Source: Octadecabacter antarcticus 307
Lineage (GTDB): Bacteria > Pseudomonadota > Alphaproteobacteria > Rhodobacterales > Rhodobacteraceae
Direction: 5' to 3'
DNA length: 64,000 bases
Assembly (NCBI RefSeq): GCF_000155675.2
Contig: NC_020911.1
Location: forward strand, 3,648,501-3,712,500
A program made the position numbers and the translations under genes. The notes beneath the pieces were generated by a model. The model was given only the letters and a program-made list of their open reading frames with translations. It ran no database searches and was not told the DNA's origin. This document shows positions 35,888-60,773 of this stretch, in pieces (position 1 is the first letter of the stretch; each line of letters opens with the position of its first letter).

Positions 35888-35924
35888 CCCCCTCTCGGGC
35901 ATGTAAAAATGCACTGCCGGGCAG
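35888..35924 (-). repeat. hairpin element
   Basis: Reverse orientation: CCCCCTCTCG, inner palindrome GCATGTAAAAATGC, then CTGCCGGGCAG. It sits in the IS30 remnant between the DNA-binding and catalytic parts. Confidence 0.8.
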
Positions 35925-36233
35925 CGGTTAGGCGATTGCATCGCGCCAAAGGCGTGCTTTTAGCACGACGCTATCACCGATAAGGGGAAAGGAGACCTGA
36001 TCGCAGGCTCTGGCCATCGCTACTCTCGTCGCACGGCACACGTGTTATGTAATGCTGGCCAAGGTCAGTAACAAAGACCGCCACAGTGTCATTCAGGCCT
36101 TAATCAGACAGTCACGCAAACTGCCAAAAGACCTGTATCGCTCACTGACTTGGGAACGCGGGTCGGAAATGGCTGGGCATAAGTAGTTCACGCTAGCGAC
36201 GGATATCAACGTGTACTTATGCGACCCACACAG

Positions 36234-36273
36234 CTCCTCTCGGCAGCATGCTTCGCATGCGCCTGTCAGGCAA
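36234..36273 (-). repeat. hairpin element
   Basis: Reverse orientation: TCCTCTCGGCA, inner palindrome GCATGCTTCGCATGC, then CCTGTCAGGCA (worn arm). It interrupts the IS30 catalytic domain just before QRGTNGNTN. Confidence 0.75.
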
Positions 36274-36470
36274 CGCGTGGCAGCGTGGGACAAACGGAAA
36301 CACCAACCGCCTGCGGCGACAGTACGTCCCAAAAAGCACAGATTTATCGATACATAGTCAAGCAAAACTGAGCGCCGTCGCAAGGCAGCCCAATGAGCGA
36401 CCTCGTATGACGCTCGGATACGAGACTCCCGCAGAGCGTTTCGATGCATGTGTTGCGTCGATCAGTTGAA

Positions 36471-36905
36471 ATCGGCCGTAATTCCAGATATTCGTGTACA
36501 AACAGCCAAGCTCAAGGGTGCGCTCAGTAAACTTGGCTGCCGCGAGCGAAGTGGTGCACGGTGCCAAAGTGATCTGACCCGCCACGCTGCCTTTCTTAGC
36601 GATTTTATTGGCCGTGGACCTGATTCTAGGGAGGTGATCCAAATTGTCAGGTCGATGCTCAACGCAGGATCTGCCTCTGCTGTGATGGGCAAGCAGGAAC
36701 TCCATGCTATCCATTTTCACACCAACATAGATGGACCGCTATGATCAGGTGCCAACTCCGACCTTAGGAGCCGTTCAGGCATTGCAACTAACGCTGACAG
36801 GGCGGAAATTTAAGATCTGCAGTCATGATTGCGCCTAGAACAGCTTCGCCCTTAACATGTTTTGCTGTTCAGAACGAACTCAGCCTTGTTCTCGAACGTG
36901 TATCA
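36471..36905. other. 435-bp gap without a recognisable gene
   Basis: Between the IS30 remnant and the riboswitch. Short open frames exist on both strands, but none resembles a known family or has a good start. It probably contains decayed IS or gene remains. Confidence 0.4.
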
Positions 36906-36911
36906 TGTGTC

Positions 36912-37078
36912 ACTGTGACAGTCTGGTGCCTGCTTATGCGGGAGAATCGGGAAGCTGGTGAAAGTCCAGCACGTGCCCAACGCTGTGAAGGTGATGATCT
37001 CTGCGAATGCCACTGGAGTAATCCGGGAAGGCGCTGAGATCAGAAGACCCTAAGTCAGAAGACCGGCCAGACAGCGCA
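36912..37078 (+). ncRNA. cobalamin (B12) riboswitch
   Basis: The sequence has the conserved blocks of the AdoCbl class in order: GGTGCC near 36925, GGGAAGCTGGTGAAAGTCCAGC near 36952 as the P3 region, GCCACTGG (B12 box element) near 37007, GGGAAGGCGCTGA near 37023, and AGAAGACCGGCC near 37055. It ends about 60 bp before bluB, where it should lower expression when B12 is plentiful. The core GCAAC element is slightly changed (CCCAACGCTGTGAAGG). Confidence 0.85.
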
Positions 37079-37135
37079 GCCTGTTCCACGAGGACGGTGG
37101 GGCGGGCGATTACACGTATTGTTGGGGACCAAACA

Positions 37136-37816
37136 ATGCCAAACACGTCAGCGCTGGCTCAGGCCGCACCCTTTTCTGAATCCGAACGCAATGCCGTTTA
37201 TAAAGCCATCTATACCCGCCGTGATGTGCGCGATCAATTCCTGCCTGATCCGCTTTCGGACAAGGTATTACTCAGATTGCTCGATGCGGCGCACCATGCG
37301 CCGTCGGTAGGCTTCGTGCAGCCGTGGAATTTTATTGTCATCCGCAGTTCGGCAGACCGTGAACGGATTTGGCAGGCCTTTAGAGGTGCGAACGACGAAG
37401 CCGCCGCTATGTTTAGCGGTGAACGGCAGTCCACTTACCAGTCACTGAAGCTTGAAGGGATCCGCAAGGCACCAGTGAATATCTGTGTGACCTGTGATCG
37501 GACGCGCGGCGGCGATGTCGTGCTGGGCCGAACCCACAACTCAAGCATGGATCTATACAGCACAGTCTGCGCCATCCAGAACCTTTGGCTTGCCGCCCGG
37601 GCCGAAGGGGTCGGTATGGGTTGGGTAAGTATTTTCCATGATGCTGACCTGAAGCGTATTCTCGCGATCCCCGACCGGATCGAGATTGTTGGCTACCTCT
37701 GTCTTGGATATGTTGATCAGCTTTATGAACGTCCCGAGCTTGAGGTCAAAGGTTGGAACCGGCGCACGCCGCTTGAAGACCTGATCTTTGATGGAAAATG
37801 GCAGGGTGACCCATAG
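37136..37816 (+). CDS. bluB: 5,6-dimethylbenzimidazole synthase
   Basis: Nitroreductase-fold enzyme that breaks down FMNH2 with oxygen to make DMB, the lower ligand of B12. The 226-residue protein has the RRDVRDQFLPDPL start, AAHHAPSVGFVQPWNFI (residues about 55-72), GRTHNSSMDLYSTVCAIQNLWLAARAEGVGMGWVS and the YERPELEVKGW end that mark BluB. GGGGAC precedes ATG 37136. A B12 riboswitch lies upstream, which is strong support. No other cob genes are near; IS remnants lie on both sides. Confidence 0.93.
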   Translation: MPNTSALAQAAPFSESERNAVYKAIYTRRDVRDQFLPDPLSDKVLLRLLDAAHHAPSVGFVQPWNFIVIRSSADRERIWQAFRGANDEAAAMFSGERQSTYQSLKLEGIRKAPVNICVTCDRTRGGDVVLGRTHNSSMDLYSTVCAIQNLWLAARAEGVGMGWVSIFHDADLKRILAIPDRIEIVGYLCLGYVDQLYERPELEVKGWNRRTPLEDLIFDGKWQGDP

Positions 37817-59153: not shown

Positions 59154-59154
59154 T

Positions 59155-59253
59155 CTGGCGCGCTTCGAGTATCTCTCGTTTGATCCTTTCTCTTTGTTGT
59201 AGAATGGCGTTGTCCCGTCCGAAGTAGACGTCAGCGGGCGTGACGTTGTTCAT
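59155..59253 (-). pseudogene. IS3 orfB C-terminal remnant
   Basis: Minus strand reads NNVTPADVYFGRDNAILQQR and ERIKREILEAR, the tail of the same IS3 transposase type as at 51541 but of a diverged copy. It directly joins the umuC fragment at 59254. Confidence 0.8.
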
Positions 59254-59366
59254 CCGTCATTGTTCGACAGCACGATCACCGGCACGTTCTTCAAAGTCGG
59301 GTCAAATATCCGCTCTGCTGAGACATAAAAATTTGTGCTGTCAGAGATCGCAATGGGCCGCTTCAT
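59254..59366 (-). pseudogene. umuC: umuC 5' fragment, second copy
   Basis: From ATG 59366 (ATGA overlap with umuD) reads MKRPIAISDSTNFYVSAERI to VPVIVLSNNDG, 38 codons, then meets an IS3 remnant. The longer fragment shows that the first copy lost a few more codons. Confidence 0.85.
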
Positions 59367-59717
59367 TCAAGATCATACCGCCGCACCACGCCTGCAATGA
59401 CGCCCCATATCTCGCTGTCTTCTGTCAACTCGATATCAGGAAAGCTCTCTTTGCTGTTGGCCGGAGCCAGAAAATAACGCCCGTCCCGCTTGCGCAACAT
59501 CTTCGCGGTCACAGCACCTTCGACGACGGCTAAAACTGCGCGCCCAACTCTCCGCTTACCAGCACGGTCAACGGCGATAATATCCCCATCTCGAATGCCT
59601 GCATCCCACAAACAATCACCTTCAACGCGCCGCCAAAACGTCGATGACGGGTGCCGAACAACCCACGAAATGGGATCAATCTCGTCTTCAAGGTCATCTC
59701 CAGCAGGTGACGGGAAC
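59363..59717 (-). pseudogene. umuD: umuD second copy, cut at the autocleavage site
   Basis: Begins at the IS3 border with FPSPAGDDLEDEIDPISWVV and continues to the normal C-terminus. The IS border falls directly at the Ala-Gly cleavage region, so what is left corresponds to UmuD'. It also has GDCLWDAGI, with Cys encoded by TGT (TGC in copy 1). It differs from copy 1 at many silent sites, so the two are older paralogues. Confidence 0.85.
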
Positions 59718-59803
59718 TGTCTGACGTCAGCGCTTCTGGGTCCAAATAGGCATATTTGATAAGAGAGTGTTGTTGGCTCATCGTAACCACTGAGGAGTGG
59801 GAC

Positions 59804-60227
59804 ATGAGACAGACAACTGGAACACGCAAAAGCCCGGGCGAGAAGATCGTCAAAGATATCAAACGGGCGACCCGCAAGCATTATTCATCTGAAGAGAAGA
59901 TTAGGATCGTCTTAGACGGTCTGCGTGGGGAAGACAGCATTGCCGAGCTGTGTCGTCCACTGCCCGGCAGTGCATGTTTACATGCACGAGAGGGGTGAAG
60001 GCATCTCCCAAGGCATCTCCCAAGGCATCTACTACAAATGGTCCAAGGACTTTATGGAGGCCGGTAAGAAGCGCCTTGCGGGCGATACCGCCCGCGCCGC
60101 CACAACCGACGAGGTGAAGGATCTGCGCCGTGAAGCACGTGATCTGAAGGAAGTCGTTGCGGAGCAAACACTTGAACTCCGCTTGCTCAAAAAAAGCATG
60201 TTCGACGGTGGGGGCGACCACGAATGA
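59804..60227 (+). pseudogene. IS3 orfA with a hairpin element (copy 2)
   Basis: As copy 1, with the same element at the same place, plus an extra 12-bp GGCATCTCCCAA unit (around 60001-60030) that duplicates the codons for GISQ. Otherwise identical in the parts compared. Confidence 0.85.
59958..59995 (+). repeat. hairpin element (orfA, copy 2)
   Basis: CACTGCCCGGCAG, inner palindrome TGCATGTTTACATGCA, then CGAGAGGGG. Identical to 52778-52815. Confidence 0.92.
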
Positions 60228-60733
60228 GGTATCCCGCATCAGAGAAGCTGGAGATCATCAAGCTGGTCGAGGGGTCGCATCTGCCGGCCCGCCTGACTTT
60301 GGCCAAGCTCGGCATTCCACGCACCACATTCTACCGTTGGTATGATCGGTATTGGCAGCGTGGTGAGGCTGGCTTGCAAGACCAATCTCCCAAGCCAAAG
60401 CACGTCTGGAACCGTATTCCTGACGAGGTGCGACGTCGGGTTGTGGACCTTGCGCTGGAAGAGACAGAACTGTCACCGCGTGAACTGGCAGTGACCTTCA
60501 CAGATAAGGAAAGCTACTTCGTATCAGAGGCTTCCGTATACCGTATGCTGAAGGCGCATGACCTGATCACCAGCCCAGCCTTCATCGTCATGAAAGCCGC
60601 CAGTGCGTTCAAAGACAAAACCACAGCGATCAACCAGCTTTGGCAAACTGACTTCACCTATCTCAAGGTTCTGGGATGGGGCTGGTTCTATCTCAGTACG
60701 ATCCTAGACGATTACAGCCGTTACATCATCTCC

Positions 60734-60773
60734 GCTGCCCGGCAGGGTATTGCGCAGCAATGTCCCGAGAGGG
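60734..60773 (+). repeat. hairpin element (orfB, copy 2)
   Basis: GCTGCCCGGCAG, inner palindrome ATTGCGCAGCAAT, then GTCCCGAGAGGG. Forty bases between IIS and WKL codons, identical to copy 1. Confidence 0.92.

What the first reader, a model, noticed from the sequence alone, without database searches (positions are those of the whole stretch)
35888..60773. A family of about 40-bp hairpin elements found only inside transposase genes
About 20 copies, including worn or partial ones (clear ones at 35888, 36234, 38408, 38477, 38564, 38600, 39560, 39615, 39677, 39950, 44622, 52012, 52778, 59958, 60734, and one at 11292), share arms TGCCCGGCAG and CGAGAGGG around a variable inner palindrome of 11-18 bp. 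Both orientations occur. The arms pair only partly (CCC with GGG), and CTGCC-C-GGCAG can fold on itself, so the RNA or single strand would be a structured cross-like hairpin. Every copy in this window lies in IS3, IS5 or IS30 transposase sequence; none is in host genes, although those make up most of the window. I know of no described repeat with these arms. Ideas, all inference: a new miniature mobile element with a preference for transposases, a host means of silencing IS genes, or a sequence skipped at RNA or translation level.
Basis: partly seen in the sequence, partly recalled or inferred. Interest (0 to 1): 0.95.

Follow-up and report, generated by a model that had tools for sequence, protein, structure and literature searches.

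The report
Removable hairpins inside transposase genes
Marine Rhodobacterales bacteria carry up to hundreds of exact ~40-base hairpin insertions that mostly break the reading frames of their jumping genes' transposases, yet some of these jumping genes have still multiplied and kept their protein sequence, so the hairpins are likely cut out or skipped when the gene is read.

Summary
The element is a precise, mostly 37-43-bp insertion (CNY-TGCCCGGCAG, variable covarying stem, YGAGAGGG) at YCRTC^G, without target duplication, in either orientation. In 464 kb not chosen by the pattern, 44 of 60 lie in confirmed transposase sequence and 14 in other repeated DNA; host genes belong to at least nine insertion-sequence (IS) types, with rare exceptions. 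241 of 276 sites hold lengths not divisible by three. Still, interrupted transposases show no clear overall excess of nonsense codons, pairs that share an insertion have median dN/dS 0.18 (element-free 0.185), and in two genomes a multi-copy IS was found interrupted in every copy, with no uninterrupted copy detected (10 copies here; 6 with four hairpins each in another genus, where removing the four restores one 308-aa transposase in 6 of 6). I favour an intron-like removal from the message (inferred; no RNA data). The stem is constrained on the element's own strand whatever the gene direction, and no trans factor was found, so DNA excision, ribosome bypass and trans-mobilised dead copies stay open.

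The parts
35890..35926 (-). hairpin element (37 nt) in IS30-type transposase
36235..36275 (-). degenerate hairpin element in IS30-type transposase
   Evidence: found as extra nucleotides in a protein alignment
38407..38447 (+). hairpin element (41 nt) in IS3-type transposase, antisense to the gene
38476..38513 (+). hairpin element with variant arm TATTACCCGGCAG, next to the previous one
   Evidence: direct reading; same variant at one IS3 site in L062/L198
38565..38641 (-). hairpin element interrupted by a second one in its CTGCC/GGCA arm
   Evidence: direct reading
38598..38634 (+). the nested inner hairpin element
   Evidence: direct reading
39560..39600 (+). hairpin element with variant arm TATTACCCGGCAG in the IS5-type copy (by position)
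   Evidence: direct reading
39614..39654 (+). hairpin element (41 nt) in IS5-type transposase, antisense
39676..39715 (+). hairpin element (40 nt) in IS5-type transposase, antisense
39951..39988 (-). hairpin element (38 nt) at IS5 reference codon 45, sense; same site as 44621 with a different stem
   Evidence: this gene copy also has 2 stops in the alignment
44621..44659 (+). hairpin element (39 nt, in-frame TGA) at IS5 reference codon 45, sense
52012..52052 (-). hairpin element in orfB of the IS at 51466-53055
   Evidence: 10 genome copies of orfB are split here
52779..52815 (-). hairpin element (37 nt) in orfA of the same IS
59958..59994 (+). hairpin element (37 nt) in orfA of the IS copy starting at 59716
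60733..60773 (+). hairpin element in orfB of that IS; frame restored by removing 40 nt, one less than the canonical length
51466..53055 (-). about 1.6-kb IS (ends TGTCTGACGTC...GACGTACA) carrying two hairpins
   Evidence: 97.8-99.9% identical copies at other places
59716..61171 (+). second, 3'-truncated copy of that IS
11292..11328 (+). strongly degenerate copy
   Evidence: direct reading

Best explanation
The repeats are precise, mostly 37-43-bp insertions, predicted to fold as two hairpins, in transposase genes, and they are likely removed from the transposase message in an intron-like step, so that the interrupted gene would still make transposase. Shown: exact insertion at YCRTC^G without target duplication, in both orientations; a covarying stem; presence in every near-identical IS copy compared; low dN/dS between genes that share an insertion; multi-copy ISs in two genomes with no uninterrupted copy found. 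Inferred: the shared insertions are inherited; removal takes place in RNA; a low efficiency is tolerated only by genes that need little product, while copies in host genes are selected against and copies in non-coding DNA decay unseen, which would explain the bias to ISs. How the elements move is unknown; the structure that matters is that of the element's own top strand, which points to an RNA or single-stranded DNA stage.
For: G013: six IS copies (99.1-99.8% identical to L218), each with four hairpins of 38, 40, 38 and 38 nt (sense, antisense, sense, antisense); removing all four gives the same 308-aa frame in 6 of 6, an rve transposase; no uninterrupted copy found in that genome; 3-bp target duplications at 3 of 6 copies. 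Window IS: 10 copies of orfB genome-wide, all split at residue 190/191 (6 of the 10 read directly). IS1182: nine C-terminal pieces at 78-90% identity all begin at residue 305, where the 37-nt element sits. 45 pairs in 15 site groups with the same site, orientation and a like hairpin and pS 0.30-0.72: median dN/dS over groups 0.18 (sense 0.20, antisense 0.13); element-free pairs 0.185, n=36. Inner identity >=0.9 in 11 of 22 same-site pairs at pS 0.45-0.60, against 2.8% of 1500 different-site pairs. Nonsense per 1000 codons 1.07 with and 0.84 without elements. Flanks >=98% alike within G000: 384 comparisons with the element, 0 without.
Against: No RNA or protein data. Stem changes on the element's own strand favour G.T over A.C also where the gene runs the other way (antisense 15 to 3; sense 15 to 9), so the host mRNA hairpin is not what is selected there. 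Both orientations occur in one gene. RtcB is absent from G000 and G013. Canonical removal restores the frame in 85 of 108 distinct insertions; 16 differ by -1 nt, the window orfB among them. Some inserts need no removal: the 39-nt element at IS1182 residue 118, one of the 15 groups, is read through in frame without a stop, and hairpins 2 and 3 of G013 add up to 78 nt, so the frame returns after them. Nonsense is higher with three or more elements (6 in 3272 codons) and in other genomes (28 in 17,823) than in element-free stretches (13 in 15,560). Among the six G013 copies variable codons are 5 nonsynonymous to 2 synonymous, and elements vary like the rest (3 of 25 variable sites in 154 of 1385 nt). 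Uninterrupted homologues up to 92% identical exist in other genomes, so a lost master copy acting in trans cannot be excluded. Low dN/dS could predate insertion if a like hairpin entered the same site repeatedly. Most G000 loci were fetched because they hold the exact pattern, so undersamples element-free copies and counts pairs from both sides.
Confidence: 0.4

Rival explanations
1. The hairpins are mobile elements that inactivate transposases; interrupted ISs are dead passengers moved in trans by an uninterrupted copy that was later lost or sits elsewhere.
For: Orientation-independent insertion and own-strand stem constraint; uninterrupted homologues at 92% aa identity in other genomes; short-term changes in the G013 copies look unconstrained; a cruder count found stops in 18 of 32 element-bearing against 3 of 32 element-free full-length copies.
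Against: The cruder count included intact reference genes and stops inside unremoved inserts; counted at well-aligned residues, with reference loci left out, the overall excess is small (1.07 against 0.84 per 1000). Median dN/dS 0.18 in pairs sharing an insertion. No uninterrupted copy found in two genomes with 10 and 6 copies.
Confidence: 0.27
2. The hairpins are excised from DNA as folded single strands, restoring the gene in some cells, and re-insert at the same target, in the manner of IS200/IS605 peel-and-paste.
For: Target 5' of the insertion (YCRTC^), no duplication, precise empty sites; own-strand hairpins; orientation does not matter.
Against: 0 element-free copies among 384 near-identical comparisons (biased sample); several excisions needed at once in G013; no Y1_Tnp in G013.
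Confidence: 0.16
3. Ribosomes bypass the hairpins during translation, like the byp elements of Magnusiomyces mitochondria or phage T4 gene 60.
For: Frame-disrupting hairpin inserts; a hairpin is present in either orientation; no trans factor needed. The review PMC5009743 (passages) reports 81 mitochondrial inserts, several without perfectly matched codons.
Against: The junction consensus gives no matching take-off and landing codons: sense RTC before the insert and GGG at its end, antisense NNC and GTG. Bypass alone would not require conserved arms.
Confidence: 0.13

Closest known systems
byp elements of Magnusiomyces capitatus mitochondria (PMC5009743, passages read)
   Same: Many short frame-disrupting inserts in protein genes whose products must be made despite them
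   Different: Bacterial, mostly in mobile-element genes, both orientations, strong target motif, no codon match in the consensus; bypass not shown
Mitochondrial double-hairpin / repetitive hairpin-forming elements (PMC2800124, title and abstract start in a listing)
   Same: Tiny mobile elements made of hairpins
   Different: Organellar; insertion into transposase genes with preserved coding not known to me (recalled)
REP elements with RAYT, and IS200/IS605-derived PATEs (recalled)
   Same: Short single-strand hairpins, insertion 3' of a short target without duplication
   Different: Y1 transposase missing in 14 of 20 element-rich genomes tested; located in genes, not between them
IStrons and group I/II introns (PMC4227781, abstract start in a listing)
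   Same: Insertions made harmless by removal from RNA
   Different: About 40 nt, no room for a ribozyme core, no Rfam match
Ciliate internal eliminated sequences (PMC3077386, abstract start in a listing)
   Same: Short sequences precisely removed to restore genes
   Different: Those are cut from DNA between TA repeats; here no flanking repeat, and near-identical copies all keep the element

Membership tests
REP/RAYT or IS200/IS605-derived hairpin elements | Y1 (HUH) transposase in genomes that carry the element | tested here: not met
   PF01797 in 6 of 20 element-rich and 1 of 20 element-free genomes; absent from G013 with 11 exact copies
REP/RAYT or IS200/IS605-derived hairpin elements | insertion 3' of a short target without duplication, strand-specific hairpin | tested here: met
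REP elements | intergenic location | tested here: not met
   44 of 60 in confirmed transposase sequence, 14 more in repeated DNA
Group I/II introns, IStrons | ribozyme core | tested here: not met
   no such Rfam match in window 35800-40200; elements mostly 37-43 nt
Intron in the wide sense | removal from RNA | not testable with these tools
   no transcript data; indirect support
[quoted passage not shown]
   junction consensus of 276 sites; single sites not tested one by one
Ordinary MITE | terminal inverted repeats with target duplication | tested here: not met
   ends CNY...GGG, no duplication at the empty sites shown

The most novel reading that the evidence does not exclude
Rhodobacterales have a class of hairpin introns, about 40 nt long and in several unrelated families (A, B, C), that are spliced from transposase messages in either orientation by unknown machinery, turning many supposed transposase pseudogenes into working genes.
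Probability: 0.32. Interest if true: 0.97.

Novelty: categorically new. Interest (0 to 1): 0.9.

Why it matters
If the hairpins are removed at expression, bacteria have a splicing- or bypass-like process that my searches did not find described, and many annotated transposase pseudogenes may be functional: the paper on two Octadecabacter genomes counts 265 of 626 mobile-element genes of O. antarcticus as pseudogenes, 14 of 15 IS1182 among them (PMC3646047, passages). If they are only mobile, a tiny element family that lives mostly inside transposons of many mechanistic classes still asks how such a target bias arises. Either way RNA sequencing of one cultured strain decides.

Tried and rejected
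Rejected: chance palindromes (reversed control 0); a known RNA family (two matches, neither on an element, one of them far below its cut-off); local gene conversion as the cause of shared hairpins (third-position identity 0.68 within 5 codons against 0.56-0.64 beyond); RtcB or Y1 as a universal trans factor; codon-matched hopping by consensus. First counts of stops after removal suggested decay; they counted stops inside unremoved inserts and intact reference genes, and were replaced. Exon-hairpin pairing (YCRTC with GAGGG, one mismatch) is only a consensus match and was not tested by covariation. The viral-contig search gave IS relatives and was not pursued. Six paper searches for such inserts in bacteria listed none whose title or abstract start describes them; two of the lists were capped (10 of 47 and 8 of 83 shown), and the library lacks most subscription journals.
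Full report
OBSERVATION. The pattern TGCCCGGCAG-N8-24-GAGAGGG occurs 284 times in the own genome (134 forward, 150 reverse) and 0 times reversed. In 394 genomes of the same family 111 have at least one copy, apart from G000 at most 30, while the reversed control hit 3 genomes once each.

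ANATOMY. Comparison with element-free homologues shows precise insertions; most of those shown agree on an insert running from three bases before TGCCCGGCAG to the last G of GAGAGGG (output cut, not counted). Over 276 distinct sites the lengths are 37 (49), 38 (39), 39 (30), 40 (28), 41 (99), 43 (19) and 12 others, so 241 of 276 are not multiples of three. There are 195 distinct inner sequences. The flank consensus is YCRTC^G (C .74 at -1, T .71 at -2, A/G .85 at -3, C .61 at -4; G .87 at +1) with no target duplication. The inner stem covaries: for 74 distinct 41-nt elements 97.5% of cells pair (shuffled 79.2), 7 pairs change on both sides, covariation score 0.449 against 0.135 shuffled and at most 0.095 when slid (74 of 76 distinct 41-nt elements were given, two with poor stems left out); for 31 distinct 37-nt elements 99.0%, score 0.423 against 0.121 shuffled and at most 0.180 when slid. 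The 41-nt class has a nearly invariant unpaired T at position 31. CTGCCCGGCAG could form its own small hairpin. The arms were fixed by the search pattern, so their conservation among these rows is not evidence.

WHERE. Natural ORFs that match a flank within 12 nt and carry transposase or IS21 IstB domains in Pfam account for 199 of 276 sites (210 with one ORF that shows only HTH domains); the other sites were not all classified. In 464 kb of own sequence not chosen by the pattern, 44 of 60 tolerant matches lie in confirmed transposase sequence (11.1% of it), 14 more in DNA that recurs elsewhere in the own loci, 2 unassigned. Motif-like target places are occupied 25 of 2538 in such transposase sequence, 1 of 17,990 in other long ORFs, 6 of 3071 elsewhere. 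Exceptions: TraG, RHS, one intergenic site.

ARE THE HOST GENES DEAD? In 163 aligned stretches with elements (33,560 codons) nonsense codons number 36 (1.07 per 1000; 133 stretches have none); in 82 without elements, reference loci left out, 13 in 15,560 (0.84; 71 have none). By group: one element 25 in 23,423 codons, two 5 in 6865, three or more 6 in 3272; own genome 8 in 15,737 with and 4 in 7536 without elements; other genomes with elements 28 in 17,823. For same-site, same-orientation pairs, hairpins are alike (inner identity >=0.9) in 134 of 135 pairs at pS<0.1, 1 of 13 at 0.1-0.3, 7 of 34 at 0.3-0.45, 11 of 22 at 0.45-0.6 and 21 of 198 at 0.6-0.95, against 2.8% of 1500 different-site pairs. 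Rare variants shared at one site in different genomes (L009/L108; L030, L119, L187, L176) argue for descent. For 45 pairs in 15 site groups with pS 0.3-0.72 and inner identity >=0.85, median dN/dS over groups is 0.18 and every group median is below 0.5, like element-free pairs (median 0.185, n=36, pS<0.6). One of these groups, IS1182 residue 118, has a 39-nt element that is open in frame and may simply be translated; at IS5 codon 45 the 39-nt element holds an in-frame stop. No strong conversion tract surrounds shared hairpins. Within G000, comparisons of copies with flanks >=98% alike give 370 same, 14 similar, 0 absent; 95-98%: 18, all with an element (4 scored different by length); 90-95%: 60 same or similar, 9 absent, 4 different; 80-90%: 19, 105, 50. 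These count each pair from both sides, and sampling by pattern undercounts empty copies.

MULTI-COPY ISs WITHOUT AN UNINTERRUPTED COPY. The window IS (two copies here, ends TGTCTGACGTC...GACGTACA) has hairpins in orfA and orfB. A six-frame search of the whole genome finds ten copies of orfB, all broken at residue 190/191; the only other match above 50% identity that covers the site is a 62-residue stretch at 59% with two stops. In IS1182, nine C-terminal pieces at 78-90% identity begin at residue 305, where the 37-nt element sits; two copies at 79% run through 305 but are broken near residues 117-148; one copy at 68% (residues 68-435) is open. In G013, another genus, six copies of a 1385-bp IS3-type element carry four hairpins each; apart from these and from short fragments the best matches are at most 35% identical. 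Exact removal gives the same 308-aa frame in six of six, with rve and HTH_21 domains. Hairpins 2 and 3 sum to 78 nt, so the raw frame returns after them. The copies have 3-13 mismatches to L218, and three of six have 3-bp target duplications (GAT, AAG, CAG). Uninterrupted relatives at up to 92% identity exist in other organisms.

MECHANISM. Removal before or during translation reconciles frame disruption with these facts. Level of removal: stems tolerate G.T on the element's own strand whatever the gene direction (all positions: sense 40 G.T to 6 A.C, antisense 48 to 2, inflated by inheritance; distinct changes between near neighbours 15 to 9 and 15 to 3, plus 12 compensatory changes and 30 to other mismatches). 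So the selected structure is the element's own strand, probably when it moves, not the host mRNA in antisense cases. Both hairpins are nearly self-complementary, so RNA-level recognition in either orientation is conceivable but unproven. Codon-matched bypass is not supported by the junction consensus. Frequent DNA excision is not supported. Boundaries: of 108 distinct insertions measured by protein alignment the extra length equals the canonical length in 80 and is one less in 16; canonical removal restores the frame in 85 (sense 30 of 46, antisense 55 of 62). The window orfB belongs to the -1 class. I commit to an intron-like RNA removal at 0.40.

TRANS FACTOR. Y1_Tnp: 6 of 20 element-rich, 1 of 20 element-free genomes; RtcB: 5 of 20 and 1 of 20. 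Neither is in G013.

KNOWN? Six paper searches listed nothing like it by title and abstract start. PMC3646047 (passages) describes O. antarcticus 307 with a 4.8-Mb chromosome, a 63-kb plasmid, 55% GC and many transposase pseudogenes, which fits G000 (4,812,600 + 62,881 bases; window GC 54.5%); that identity is my inference.

Noticed in passing
L073, L093, L109, L124, L132, L174, L187, L190 and others; e.g. L132:4979: A second hairpin family (GCCATTGGTTCGAGCCCAATGG and variants), found as about 37-nt extra sequence in transposase alignments; 18 matches in 296 loci, the window one weak.
   Followed up: partly
window 35942 (-), L124:5213, L252:1176; nested in a family A hairpin in L035, L064, L070: A third, about 25-nt double hairpin (GTGCTGAAAGCACGCCTTTGGCGTG), in three loci inside the loop of a family A element; 8 matches in 7 of 296 loci.
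   Followed up: partly
window 38565-38641: One family A element is inserted in the arm of another, which speaks for movement.
   Followed up: yes
window 36908-37085: Cobalamin riboswitch (Rfam RF00174, 105.8 bits), upstream of an ORF that looks nitroreductase-like (not searched).
   Followed up: no
L099 (minus-strand site 5229), L004:1501-1536, L077:4399-4435: Elements outside ISs: in a TraG coupling-protein gene, in an RHS gene (recognised by eye), and between two host genes.
   Followed up: partly
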